Source: a virus. Taken from it: a stretch of 64,000 nt of DNA. This document shows positions 32,932 through 49,390 of the stretch, piece by piece (the first letter of the stretch is position 1; each line of letters starts with the position of its first letter). The position numbers were made by a program, and so were the translations under genes. The stretch covers positions 1 through 64,000 of IMG/VR virus record IMGVR_UViG_3300010430_000024, one strand, 5' to 3'. The notes beneath the pieces are model-generated. The model ran no database searches and was not told the DNA's origin. It saw only the letters and a program-made list of their open reading frames with translations.

Positions 32932-33006
32932 TGGACCCGCTGCCGGGAGTCGAACCCGGTCTCTCCGCTTTGAAAGGCGTTGACACTCCACAGTGCCTTC
33001 AGCGAG
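32932..33006 (-). tRNA. tRNA or tRNA-like gene with UCA in the anticodon position
   Basis: Read on the minus strand it has a 7-bp acceptor (CTCGCTG/CAGCGGG, one G-U), D stem GGCA/TGTC, a perfect T arm (CCGGG-TTCGACT-CCCGG), discriminator T and an encoded CCA. Canonical numbering puts TCA at positions 34-36, which would read UGA. The anticodon stem is poor (ACGCC against GCGGA; three of five pairs fail); a shifted register gives a 3-bp stem and an 8-base loop. So this could be a suppressor or frameshift tRNA, a decayed tRNA, or a tRNA mimic. No spacer is seen before the operator at 33024. Confidence 0.6.
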
Positions 33007-46726: not shown

Positions 46727-46767
46727 TTACCACTGAGTGTTGACTTTCACCAGCGCGAGAGTATCAT
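46727..46767 (+). promoter_or_regulatory. Operator and promoter of the Y RNA array
   Basis: TTACCACTGAGTGTTGA (46727-46743) is an operator-like copy overlapping the -35 box TTGACT (46740-46745). With a 16-bp spacer, the -10 box is TATCAT (46762-46767). The expected start is near 46774, exactly where the first Ro-binding stem begins. Confidence 0.75.
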
Positions 46768-46773
46768 GCTTTC

Positions 46774-46866
46774 GCCTGAGCCGAATGCTCGTCGGTTATC
46801 CGAGCCAAACCTTCGGACGTAACCGCGAAAGCGGTCGTCAATCCGACAGCAACAACATGTTCAGGC
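46774..46866 (+). ncRNA. Y RNA-like unit 1
   Basis: Lower stem GCCTGAGC (46774-46781) with GTTCAGGC (46859-46866), one G-U. After it comes CCGA, nine to eleven bases and GTTATC, the Ro-binding 5' strand; the opposite strand is AGCAACAACAT just before the lower stem. The upper stem is GTCGG with CCGAC. The body contains a CCGC-GAAA-GCGG hairpin. This matches the Ro60-binding core of Y RNAs (vertebrate Y RNAs have GGUCCGA...GUUAUC on the 5' strand, from memory). The stem starts at the predicted transcription start. Confidence 0.8.
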
Positions 46867-46869
46867 TAA

Positions 46870-46969
46870 GCGGGATGCCAGTGGTGGCATTGCTCCATCG
46901 TCTACACCATGCTCGACAGCGAGCCGACTGAGGATGGTTATCATAGTTCGATTCTATAATCCCGCTCCA
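46870..46969 (+). ncRNA. Y RNA-like unit 2 within a tRNA-Gly-like frame
   Basis: Ends GCGGGAT (46870-46876) and ATCCCGC (46959-46965) form a perfect 7-bp acceptor, followed by T and an encoded CCA (46967-46969), as in tRNA-Gly. A TGCCA-GTGG-TGGCA hairpin takes the D-arm place and ATAG-TTCGATT-CTAT is a T-arm mimic. The anticodon arm is replaced by a permuted Ro-binding module: 3' strand ACACCAT then GCTCG-ACAG-CGAGC closing loop, then CCGA...GTTATC, with the upper stem CCATC/GATGG. Every module part is present. Confidence 0.75.
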
Positions 46970-46972
46970 ATT

Positions 46973-47002
46973 TTGACACGTTGCGAAGCGACGTGGTGAT
47001 AC
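46973..47002 (+). promoter_or_regulatory. Promoter before Y RNA-like unit 3
   Basis: TTGACA (46973-46978), an 18-bp spacer and TGATAC (46997-47002). The lower stem of unit 3 starts seven bases later. It is a weaker -10 box than at the other promoters. Confidence 0.45.
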
Positions 47003-47008
47003 AAGTTT

Positions 47009-47090
47009 TGTGGACCGAAGATCAATCGTTATCTGTTGAGTGCGAAAAGCGCTTCTTGGAAATACCTCGGTTGCTCATACCATGTCCACA
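47009..47090 (+). ncRNA. Y RNA-like unit 3
   Basis: Lower stem TGTGGAC (47009-47015) with GTCCACA (47084-47090), perfect. 5' strand CCGA-AGATCAATC-GTTATC, 3' strand CTCATACCAT, upper stem CAATCG with CGGTTG. It is followed by CATTTAAGTTTT, a linker also seen after unit 4 and, in a variant form, after unit 5. Part of a tandem array. Confidence 0.85.
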
Positions 47091-47099
47091 TTTAAGTTT

Positions 47100-47180
47100 T
47101 GCGAGCCGATGAGTAAGAGCGTTACCCAACCTGTTAAGTTGATGGCGAAAGCCACACCGCTCTCTCGCAACATGTTCGCA
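47100..47180 (+). ncRNA. Y RNA-like unit 4
   Basis: Lower stem TGCGAGC (47100-47106) with GTTCGCA (47174-47180), one G-U. 5' strand CCGA...GTTACC, 3' strand CTCGCAACAT, upper stem AGAGC with GCTCT. The body has a GGC-GAAA-GCC hairpin. The unit is 9 bases after unit 3 and is followed by the same TTTAAGTTTT linker, so it is probably part of a multi-unit transcript. Confidence 0.85.
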
Positions 47181-47188
47181 TTTAAGTT

Positions 47189-47335
47189 TTTAGGACCGGA
47201 TGGATTGAAGGTTATCTTCTGAAAAGAGTAGGTCACTGGTTCGATTCCAGTTGCGCACCCTACAATGGTGCGTATAGCTCAGCTGGCAGAGCAACTTGCC
47301 GTAAGGCATCTCCTTCGCCAACAACATGTCCTAAA
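47189..47335 (+). ncRNA. Y RNA-like unit 5, YrlA-type with permuted tRNA-like domain
   Basis: Lower stem TTTAGGAC (47189-47196) with GTCCTAAA (47328-47335), perfect 8 bp. 5' strand CCGG...GTTATC, 3' strand GCCAACAACAT, upper stem GAAGG with CCTTC. Inside is a tRNA in permuted order: T arm ACTGG-TTCGATT-CCAGT (47235-47251), acceptor strand TGCGCACC (47252-47259), closing loop, matching strand GGTGCGTA (47267-47274), then D arm GCTC...GAGC (47277-47292), and a TGCC-GTAA-GGCA hairpin. Bacterial YrlA RNAs have just such a tRNA-like module. Confidence 0.88.
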
Positions 47336-47341
47336 TTTAGT

Positions 47342-47369
47342 TTGACTTCCTATGTCAGTTGTGTACAAT
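47342..47369 (+). promoter_or_regulatory. Promoter before unit 6 and the Ro60 gene
   Basis: TTGACT (47342-47347), 16-bp spacer with CTTCCTATGTCAGTT, TACAAT (47364-47369). The predicted start is near 47376, at the first base of unit 6. The spacer motif matches other phage promoters here. Confidence 0.75.
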
Positions 47370-47376
47370 CGCCTTT

Positions 47377-47462
47377 CGGTTGTTCAACAACATGCTCGAC
47401 AGCCCCACAACCGGGCGCAGCTGCGTAGCTGCTTTTATTCGAGCCGAGGAAGAATCGTTATC
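47377..47462 (+). ncRNA. Y RNA-like unit 6, permuted, in the Ro60 mRNA leader
   Basis: The 3' strand comes first: CGGTTG (47377-47382), TTCAACAACAT, then GCTCGA; the 5' strand follows: TCGAGC (47439-47444), CCGA-GGAAGAATC-GTTATC ending at 47462. Lower stem GCTCGA/TCGAGC and upper stem CGGTT/AATCG pair correctly. Between the strands is a GCAGCT-GCGT-AGCTGC hairpin. It lies between the promoter at 47342 and the start codon at 47578, so it is in the mRNA leader. Confidence 0.75.
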
Positions 47463-47577
47463 TATGATGAAGAGGCGTTTGAGGCTCAGTCGGTGAATAG
47501 ACTTCTCAAAGGAGGACACCACTGAGCCGAGCCAATTTTTGTATGCTCGTGATGGACGAGCCGAACAGGGGAAAAAG

Positions 47578-49209
47578 ATGGACTATTCAAAGCACGTAAA
47601 TACTCGCGCCACCTCACAGCGTGAGCGCACTCCCGGCAGGACTGATGAAGTCAAGAACAGCGAAGGTGGATTCGTCCATGCTGTTAGTGATTGGGATCGT
47701 CTTGACCGCTTCCTGATTCTGGGTTCTGAAGGTGGAACCTTTTACATCAGCGAGAGCAACCTGACCAAGGACAATGCTGAAGGCACCATCCGACTAATCA
47801 AACAGGATGGACTTCGTGTCGTTAATACGGTTGTCGAAATCTCACAGGCTGGTCGTTCGCATAAGAACGATGCTGCCCTGTTTGTACTCGCTATGTGCGC
47901 GAAGCTGGGCAATGAGCAGACTCGTAAGCTGGCACTTGGCGTATTGCCCAAGGTCGCTCGAACGGGTACTCACTTGTTTCAGTTCGCAACCTTCATTGAA
48001 GCCTTCGGTGGTTGGGGCCGCGCAACTAAGCGTGCCTTCCAGCGTTGGTACAATGAGCGGGACAACGACAAGCTGGCTTACCAGCTGTTGAAGTACCGTC
48101 AGCGTGATGGTTGGACTCACCGTGACATCATGCGTCTGGCTCACCCGGTTACGACCGATGACCAGAAGCGTGCGATGTTCGATGTGACGACTCACCCAGA
48201 GAAGCTGGATAACGTAGACGTTCGTGCCGAGCTGCCTGAGATTTATCAGGGCTATCACATGGCGCGTGACGACATGCCCAGCGCTGACAGGGTTGAGCTT
48301 CTGAAAGACTTCAACCTGTCGTGGGAAATGCTACCGACTGAGTGGCTGAAGGATGAAGCTGTGAACACGCAGCTGCTCCAGAAGATGCCGCTCATGGCTA
48401 CCATTCGTCAGCTCGGTAAGATGACTGCGAACGGTACGCTGAAGCCGATGGACATGAACACCAAGCTGGTGTTGGAGCGTCTGATGGATGACGAGCAGAT
48501 CAAGCGCTCACGCATTCACCCGATGCACTACTTGCTGGCGTTGAAGAACTACTCAGCTGGTCACGGCTTCCGTGGCGGCATGACTTGGAACTCTGACCCA
48601 CGTGTGATCTCTGCACTGGATAAGGGATTCGAGAAGTCGTTCGCGAATGTCGAGCCTACTGGTAAGGCGTTCATGCTCGGTGTCGATGTCTCAAGCTCGA
48701 TGCGATGTGCGGTCTCTGGATCGAACATCAGTTGTGCAGAGGCTGCTGGTGCCATGGCAATGGTGATCGCTCGTACTGAGCCTGTTCACTTCGTCCACGG
48801 CTTTACCAGTGGATCGAGTCGCGGCTACAGCTATCGTCAGTCCAATGTTGAGGGCTTCGTTGATCTCGGCATTGGCTCGAACGACTCAATGGCAAGCGTG
48901 ATGAGTAAGGTGCAGAACCGAAACTTTGGTGGCACCGACTGCGCAGTTCCGATGTTGTACGCCTCGGCAAACAACATCATGGTTGACACCTTCGTGGTGT
49001 TGACTGATTCGGAAACGTGGGCTGGTGACATCAAGCCAGCTCAGGCTTTGCAGTCATACCGTCAGACCCATAACCCGAACGCTAAGCTCGTGGTTGTTGG
49101 CATGACTTCAAATGGATTCAGCATTGCTGATCCGAACGATGCTGGCATGTTGGATGTGGTCGGCTTCGACGCTAACGTACTCCCCGTTATCGCGGAGTTC
49201 AGTAGATAA
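47578..49209 (+). CDS. rsr: Ro60/Rsr-type TROVE protein
   Basis: About 543 residues from the ATG at 47578, with AGGGG upstream; a TTG frame opening at 47539 lies in the leader structure and is unlikely. The TROVE domain is a helical-repeat ring: FLILGSEGGTFYISESNLTK, then LFQFATFIEAFGGWGRATKR and WTHRDIMRLAHP. The C-terminal third is a vWA domain with LGVDVSSSMRCAVSG (MIDAS DxSxS) and VLTDSETW. Ro60 proteins bind misfolded RNA in the central hole and Y RNA on the outside. Directly upstream are six Y RNA-like modules, so this is a phage Ro-Y RNA system. Confidence 0.9.
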   Translation: MDYSKHVNTRATSQRERTPGRTDEVKNSEGGFVHAVSDWDRLDRFLILGSEGGTFYISESNLTKDNAEGTIRLIKQDGLRVVNTVVEISQAGRSHKNDAALFVLAMCAKLGNEQTRKLALGVLPKVARTGTHLFQFATFIEAFGGWGRATKRAFQRWYNERDNDKLAYQLLKYRQRDGWTHRDIMRLAHPVTTDDQKRAMFDVTTHPEKLDNVDVRAELPEIYQGYHMARDDMPSADRVELLKDFNLSWEMLPTEWLKDEAVNTQLLQKMPLMATIRQLGKMTANGTLKPMDMNTKLVLERLMDDEQIKRSRIHPMHYLLALKNYSAGHGFRGGMTWNSDPRVISALDKGFEKSFANVEPTGKAFMLGVDVSSSMRCAVSGSNISCAEAAGAMAMVIARTEPVHFVHGFTSGSSRGYSYRQSNVEGFVDLGIGSNDSMASVMSKVQNRNFGGTDCAVPMLYASANNIMVDTFVVLTDSETWAGDIKPAQALQSYRQTHNPNAKLVVVGMTSNGFSIADPNDAGMLDVVGFDANVLPVIAEFSR

Positions 49210-49215
49210 CATCCT

Positions 49216-49256
49216 TTATCACTGGGTGTTGATTTGTCAGCACCCAGTGGTATACT
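49216..49256 (+). promoter_or_regulatory. Operator-like site and promoter of the recombination operon
   Basis: TTATCACTGGGTGTTGA (49216-49232) is an operator-like copy overlapping the -35 box TTGATT (49229-49234). After a 16-bp spacer comes TATACT (49251-49256). CACTGGGTG and CACCCAGTG are perfect 9-bp inverted arms around the -35 box. This may combine terminator and promoter functions after the Ro60 gene. Confidence 0.65.
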
Positions 49257-49260
49257 TAGG

Positions 49261-49390
49261 ATGTGTGAGTGAAGCTGGACAGGCACCTATTAAGGTACAC
49301 GAGTCCGGGTCTGACTGGGGAGCATTCCCCTATTAGGTGAGCGGTTGAAAGTATCGCTGTAAAGCAGGTTGGATTCCTGCCCTCGCACAT
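49261..49390 (+). ncRNA. Structured leader RNA with tRNA-like ends
   Basis: A 9-bp closing stem ATGTGTGAG (49261-49269) with CTCGCACAT (49382-49390), one G-U. Internal pairs: CACCTA (49284-49289) with TAGGTG (49334-49339), GGGGA with TCCCC, GCGGT with ATCGC, and GCAGG-TTGGATT-CCTGC (49364-49380), a T-arm-like hairpin just before the 3' strand. It begins at the predicted transcription start and ends 48 bases before YqaJ. Riboswitch-like leader or tRNA mimic; family unknown. A TGCACTG/CAGTGCA hairpin follows at 49401-49419. Confidence 0.55.

What the first reader, a model, noticed from the sequence alone, without database searches (positions are those of the whole stretch)
46727..49209. Phage Ro60 (TROVE) gene with an array of six Y RNA-like Ro-binding modules
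Seen in sequence: six 5' strands of the form CCGA (one CCGG), 9-11 bases, GTTATC (one GTTACC), and six 3' strands of the form (CA)ACAT or ACCAT before the lower stem. Each of the six pairs through a lower stem of 5-8 bp and an upper stem of 5-6 bp, with sequences that differ between units but still pair. That covariation is strong evidence for real RNA structure. Known: Ro60/Rsr proteins bind Y RNAs through such a module, and bacteria usually have one or two Y RNAs. Inference: this phage carries a self-contained, multi-copy Ro-Y RNA system, perhaps to control RNA decay or RNA quality after infection. I know of no phage with such an array.
Basis: partly seen in the sequence, partly recalled or inferred. 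Interest (0 to 1): 0.95.

Follow-up and report, generated by a model that had tools for sequence, protein, structure and literature searches.

The report
Phage Ro60 gene with tRNA-like Y RNAs
This phage carries a gene for the ring-shaped RNA-binding protein Ro60 together with six small RNAs predicted to bind it; such phage Y RNA sets are already known, but one of the six looks like a transfer RNA whose decoding arm has been replaced by the Ro60-binding site, which could give researchers a direct way to test what these RNA-protein particles do.

Summary
The window is phage DNA (terminase, portal). At 47578-49209 it encodes a Ro60/Rsr orthologue. Upstream, on the same strand, lie six Ro-binding RNA modules. 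All six pair, and they covary across related phages (lower stem 122/125 and upper stem 123/125 positions paired; 0 of 20,000 shuffles).

The claim of uniqueness fails. Phage Y RNAs have been reported, named actinophages carry 2-4 near Ro, and some Anaerolineae and phage Ro loci carry 4-6.

Unit 5 is YrlA (a permuted tRNA-like domain). Units 2 and 6 carry the Ro module in reverse strand order. Unit 2 is a tRNA-like RNA in normal tRNA order (7-bp acceptor, D and T arms, encoded CCA), with the Ro module replacing the anticodon arm; it is a circular permutant of YrlA. The acceptor covaries strongly. Related forms recur in unrelated phages and bacterial genome bins; 12 are otherwise complete tRNAs interrupted by a Ro module between nucleotides 28 and 29. 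Promoter-like sites are conserved.

Most likely the phage makes Ro-RNA particles whose tRNA-like ends recruit host tRNA-binding or RNA-decay factors. Binding and function are inferred. Verdict: a new variant of a known kind.

The parts
46740..46767 (+). Promoter-like site (TTGACT-16-TATCAT) at the start of the array; predicted start of transcription falls on the lower stem of unit 1
   Evidence: same spacing in all 7 loci examined
46774..46866 (+). Unit 1: plain Y RNA module, canonical strand order
46870..46969 (+). Unit 2: tRNA-like RNA in normal tRNA order (acceptor GCGGGAT/ATCCCGC, D arm, T arm with loop TTCGATT, 3' end TCCA) with a permuted Ro module (46895-46942) in place of the anticodon arm
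47009..47090 (+). Unit 3: plain Y RNA module
47100..47180 (+). Unit 4: plain Y RNA module
47189..47335 (+). Unit 5: YrlA-type Y RNA, Ro module carrying a permuted tRNA-like domain (T arm, closed 8-bp acceptor stem, D arm)
   Evidence: Rfam RF02553 36.4 bits at 47205-47321; acceptor 8/8 paired with different sequences in 8 loci
47342..47369 (+). Promoter-like site (TTGACT-16-TACAAT) directly before unit 6
   Evidence: same in L005, L006, L149
47377..47462 (+). Unit 6: permuted Ro module (3' strand first; lower stem closed by two hairpins); in this phage it lies in the predicted leader of the Ro mRNA
47541..47561 (+). Leader hairpin ATGCTCGTGATGGACGAGCCG, identical in all relatives; resembles the lower half of a permuted Ro module; possible Ro autoregulation site (inferred)
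47578..49209 (+). Ro60/Rsr gene (TROVE and vWA domains), 543 aa
49229..49389 (+). Promoter-like site (TTGATT-16-TATACT) and a further tRNA-like RNA (acceptor TGTGTGAG/CTCGCACA, T arm) downstream of Ro; relatives carry different tRNA-like RNAs in this slot

Best explanation
This is a phage-encoded Ro RNP cassette. One ring protein (Ro60/Rsr) is made together with a set of Y RNAs that all carry the same Ro-docking helix but different outer ends. Units 1, 3 and 4 are plain Y RNAs. Unit 5 is YrlA, with a closed, permuted tRNA-like domain. Unit 2 presents the same tRNA-like surface in normal tRNA order with an open, CCA-ending acceptor. Unit 6 is a permuted module placed in the Ro leader. Transcription most likely starts at 46774 and again near 47375. 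The first transcript is cut into single RNAs; only three bases (TAA) separate unit 1 from unit 2, so a tRNA 5'-processing cut (RNase P) could release both. Ro then binds each module, leaving the variable end free to tether host partners (PNPase in the known Deinococcus case, or tRNA-processing or tRNA-modifying enzymes) and steer decay or quality control of structured RNA and tRNA during infection. Shown here: the gene, the modules, their pairing and covariation, the tRNA-like forms, and the conserved promoter-like sites. Inferred: transcription, processing, binding, partners and benefit.
For: Ro60 orthology. The residues matching human K170, R174 and H187 (K172, R176, H189 here) and the vWA metal-site residues D370, S372 and S374 are invariant in 13 aligned sequences (the role of K170, R174 and H187 in Y RNA binding is from memory). 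Module pairing and covariation. Unit 2: acceptor 100% paired with two-sided changes at 6 of 7 pairs, T stem 94%. A covariance model of unit 2 finds it in L004, which was not used for training (52.5 bits), and in unrelated phages L284 and L272 (35 bits). YrlA acceptor paired 8/8 in all eight loci. Promoter-like sites with an identical 16-nt spacer in 7 of 7 arrays. Array and Ro are on the same strand and conserved together in L003-L008, L016 and L149. Known precedent for tethering: Rsr-Y RNA-PNPase (PMC8394870).
Against: There are no transcripts, binding data or host. Only unit 5 matches Rfam YrlA, and below its gathering score. No RtcB was found in this record, so the bacterial RNA-repair operon context is absent. 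Several aligned examples of the tRNA-like form outside the window family were chosen by a descriptor that required acceptor and T-stem pairing, which inflates their share of the covariation; the six family members lie at matching places in related arrays. The loops of the alignment used for the covariance model were trimmed by hand, so its D-stem counts should not be used. The window's unit 2 has unusual D-arm spacing.
Confidence: 0.6

Rival explanations
1. Decoy model: the tRNA-like Y RNAs (units 2 and 5) lack a normal anticodon arm, so they occupy tRNA-cutting nucleases or other tRNA-targeting defence proteins without being cut. Ro stabilises the decoys.
For: The competitive-inhibitor idea for YrlA against an anticodon nuclease is in print (PMC7790460). 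Unit 2 replaces the anticodon arm completely. A separate slot downstream of Ro holds different tRNA-like RNAs in different relatives. Related loci carry tRNA-Y chimeras with many different anticodons.
Against: Three of the six units have no tRNA-like part. Ro itself would not be needed for a decoy. No defence target is known here.
Confidence: 0.2
2. Autoregulation model: the modules act mainly as Ro-binding sites in the leader of the Ro mRNA and set the Ro level, not as separate Y RNAs.
For: Unit 6 and the invariant 21-nt hairpin lie just before the Ro start codon, and a promoter-like site precedes unit 6.
Against: In L005, L006 and L149 the equivalent of unit 6 lies in the middle of the array and is followed by a terminator-like hairpin with a T run, as seen in the sequence. 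Units 1-5 have a promoter-like site of their own and tRNA-like ends not needed for a binding site.
Confidence: 0.12
3. Inherited host-like quality control: the cassette was taken from a bacterial Ro locus and does the same job as there, with no infection-specific role.
For: Bacterial Ro loci show the same parts: multi-Y sets and tRNA-like Y RNAs.
Against: The cassette is kept and diversified across a phage family, and Ro-like matches occur in 347 phage records, which suggests a benefit to phages.
Confidence: 0.08

Closest known systems
Bacterial Y RNA YrlA (Rfam RF02553; Salmonella YrlA, PDB 6CU1)
   Same: Unit 5: Ro module plus permuted tRNA-like domain with T arm, closed acceptor and D arm
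   Different: Below the Rfam gathering score (36.4 against 69). Unit 2 is the other circular permutant: acceptor open with CCA, Ro lower stem closed
Ro60/Rsr proteins (human Ro60; Deinococcus radiodurans Rsr)
   Same: TROVE ring and vWA domains over the full length; conserved Y RNA-binding and metal-site residues
   Different: Encoded by a phage, without RtcB in the record; partners unknown
RYPER (Rsr-Y RNA-PNPase of D. radiodurans)
   Same: Ro plus tRNA-like Y RNA, as in the known tether
   Different: PNPase binding not tested; several RNA types together
Phage Y RNAs: mycobacteriophage Y RNAs (Chen et al. 2014, cited in PMC12282133) and Listeria phage CKA15 (PMC12282133)
   Same: Ro/Rsr homologue with several candidate Y RNAs nearby on the same strand
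   Different: Actinophages examined here have 2-4 modules; none showed the open-acceptor form in the descriptor search
tRNA-Gly
   Same: Unit 2 acceptor GCGGGAT with U73 and CCA resembles tRNA-Gly (from memory)
   Different: No anticodon arm; not a tRNA

Membership tests
Ro60/Rsr | TROVE and vWA_Ro60 domains over the curated cut-offs | tested here: met
   134.6 and 202.4 bits against 23 and 27.7
Ro60/Rsr | Full-length match to solved Ro60/Rsr | tested here: met
   Human Ro60 9nen, E 7e-117, residues 17-542
Ro60/Rsr | Y RNA-binding residues (human K170, R174, H187) kept | tested here: met
   K172, R176, H189, invariant in 13 sequences; which residues bind is from memory
Ro60/Rsr | Binds Y RNA | not testable with these tools
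   Needs purified protein
Y RNA | Ro-docking helix: lower stem, CCGR bulge, upper stem, GUUAYC opposite ACAU-like strand | tested here: met
   Six of six units
Y RNA | Encoded next to a Ro gene | tested here: met
   Directly upstream, same strand
Y RNA | Expressed as a separate small RNA | not testable with these tools
   No transcript data
YrlA (RF02553), unit 5 | Score over the Rfam gathering cut-off | tested here: not met
   36.4 bits against 69, E 1.2e-05; so it is described as YrlA-type, not as a curated RF02553 member
YrlA (RF02553), unit 5 | Permuted tRNA-like domain: T arm, closed acceptor, D arm on the Ro stem | tested here: met
   All eight relatives, acceptor 8/8 paired
tRNA, unit 2 | 7-bp acceptor, T arm with UUCRANN loop, CCA end | tested here: met
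tRNA, unit 2 | Anticodon arm | tested here: not met
   Replaced by the Ro module; ARAGORN does not call it intact
RYPER | Y RNA tethers Ro to PNPase | not testable with these tools
   Host and binding unknown

The most novel reading that the evidence does not exclude
There is an overlooked class of tRNA-Y RNA chimeras: a Ro-binding module built into a tRNA in normal order, between nucleotides 28 and 29 or in place of the anticodon arm. The known YrlA would then be a circular permutant of the same design. Both permutants sit side by side in this phage array, and the chimeras present real or blanked anticodon arms on a Ro ring, as sensors, substrates or decoys for tRNA-acting factors.
Probability: 0.4. 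Interest if true: 0.8.

Novelty: new variant of a known kind. Interest (0 to 1): 0.62.

Why it matters
What bacterial and phage Ro60 particles do is still open. A compact phage cassette with one Ro and six RNAs of four designs lets each outer end be tested separately in one system. The normal-order tRNA-Ro form shows how the permuted YrlA could be derived from a tRNA, and it suggests tRNA biology as a target besides general RNA decay. It also means tRNA annotation near Ro genes is missing a recurring kind of interrupted tRNA.

Tried and rejected
Uniqueness of the array: rejected. Rfam YrlA as a test for all six units: only unit 5 responds. A broad DNA pattern scan for the tRNA-Ro form returned mostly ordinary tRNAs and chance matches. 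Excising the insert and asking ARAGORN for a tRNA was not informative: 27 of 32 elements against 25-27 after shuffling; the anticodon-hairpin test replaced it. MAFFT misaligned the ends of unit 2, so stems were aligned by segment. RtcB in the phage record: none. Chen et al. 2014 and the Sim et al. review could not be read, so whether they describe the normal-order form is not known. Many of the ~73-nt hits of the unit 2 model overlap ordinary tRNAs.

Full report
What was checked. The window belongs to a 73,646-base virus record with terminase and portal genes; its Ro protein has many phage relatives. ORF 47578-49209 matches TROVE and vWA_Ro60 over their cut-offs and human Ro60 along its length (E 7e-117). 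The residues matching human K170, R174 and H187 are invariant in 13 aligned phage proteins; that these residues bind Y RNA is from memory.

The six modules are real. All six 5' strands and six 3' strands are present. A strict descriptor finds five in the region and none in 2,000 shuffles. Close relatives (Ro 70-80% identical) carry the same kind of array upstream of Ro. Over 25 modules the lower stem pairs in 122/125 and the upper in 123/125 positions; re-dealing the 3' strands never reaches this in 20,000 trials. Some 3' strands were chosen as the best-pairing candidate, which favours pairing somewhat, but the partners lie at matching places in the relatives.

Architecture. The order of strands shows that units 2 and 6 have the 3' strand first. 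Unit 5 is YrlA-like: Rfam RF02553 scores 36.4 bits, below gathering. Its closed 8-bp acceptor stem pairs completely in eight relatives with changing sequence. YrlA is known to be circularly permuted relative to tRNA (PMC11472068). Unit 2 (46870-46969) is the other permutant: a 7-bp acceptor, D arm, Ro module where the anticodon arm should be, T arm with loop TTCGATT, acceptor, and TCCA. On ten sequences the acceptor is 100% paired with two-sided changes at 6 of 7 pairs. Four of these ten were found by requiring pairing; within the six members of the window family, positions 3 to 7 of the acceptor still change on both sides (alignment). A covariance model built from six sequences finds the untrained member L004 (52.5 bits) and two further phages (35 bits).

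Transcription signals. Three promoter-like sites on the Ro strand (46740, 47342, 49229) are among the best in the region. The first has an identical 16-nt spacer in seven of seven arrays, the second recurs in L005, L006 and L149, and the third in L004, L008 and L016. The predicted first start falls on the first base of the unit 1 stem. Only TAA or TAT lies between unit 1 and unit 2 in the relatives, so cleavage at the tRNA-like 5' end would free both (inference). A 21-nt hairpin before the Ro start codon is identical in all relatives and resembles half of a permuted module; a role in autoregulation is a guess.

How common. Counting 5' strands near Ro in 80 bacterial and 80 viral loci gives up to six in both, with the opposite strand nearly empty. 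Anaerolineae contigs and phage L268 hold about five checked modules each. Actinophages hold 2-4, some inside tRNA arrays. Thus the array is a large example of a known arrangement.

The wider class. A descriptor for tRNA plus Ro module finds 34 elements in 28 Ro loci on the Ro strand and none on the other; a few entries are copies of the window family under other locus ids. Outside the window family many keep an anticodon hairpin directly after GUUAU. Hairpins with U33 and a purine at 37 occur in 12 of 31, against 0.43 after shuffling. Requiring a complete tRNA gives 14 elements, 12 of them clean, with the insert in the 5' strand of the anticodon stem (between nucleotides 28 and 29 by tRNA numbering) and with eleven different anticodons; two looser cases (L141, L241) are doubtful. 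One control needs care: 47 of 296 other modules also show such a hairpin, some because YrlA-type RNAs keep it, as in L141. The ARAGORN excision test did not discriminate.

Mechanism. The best-supported reading is a set of interchangeable outer ends on one Ro ring, by analogy with the Deinococcus Rsr-Y RNA-PNPase particle (PMC8394870). The main rival is a decoy for tRNA-cutting nucleases, an idea already printed for YrlA (PMC7790460). Neither is tested here. The host is unknown; the only genome-bin close relative (L149, 80% identical) is a 7.2-kb contig in a Desulfuromonadales bin, probably itself phage.

Novelty. Phage Y RNAs and multi-copy sets are known or expected (PMC12282133). The normal-order tRNA-Ro form was not found in the papers that could be read, but the key paper (Chen et al. 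2014) was not available, so novelty of that form is likely, not certain.

Noticed in passing
L154 341-466, L162 2227-2349, L175 5188-5311, L186 2107-2236, L200 5127-5248, L216 904-1023, L225 5794-5920, L253 2075-2195, L261 685-804, L283 1743-1888, L284 2159-2280, L306 2110-2236: Otherwise complete tRNAs with many different anticodons, interrupted between nucleotides 28 and 29 by a 48-74 nt Ro-binding module.
   Followed up: partly
L161, L166, L171, L175, L193, L194, L202: In Myxococcota genome contigs the Ro gene lies inside chromosomal tRNA arrays of 10-24 tRNAs within about 5-7 kb.
   Followed up: no
window 49229-49389; L004 6649 on; L006, L008 and L016 downstream of Ro: A promoter-like site and a tRNA-like RNA downstream of Ro; relatives hold different tRNA-like RNAs in the same slot. 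No Rfam match for it.
   Followed up: partly
window 47541-47561: 21-nt hairpin identical in all relatives just before the Ro start codon, not in a constant reading frame with Ro.
   Followed up: partly
L148 4985-5041 (Gordonia phage GMA2): Pistol ribozyme (56.8 bits) between tRNA genes, near tmRNA and YrlA-like matches.
   Followed up: no
window 32932-33006, minus strand: ARAGORN calls a tRNA with a two-base anticodon.
   Followed up: no
L017 2692-2847: 156-base match to the Rfam tRNA model (44.7 bits) just upstream of a phage Ro gene; another tRNA with a large insert.
   Followed up: no
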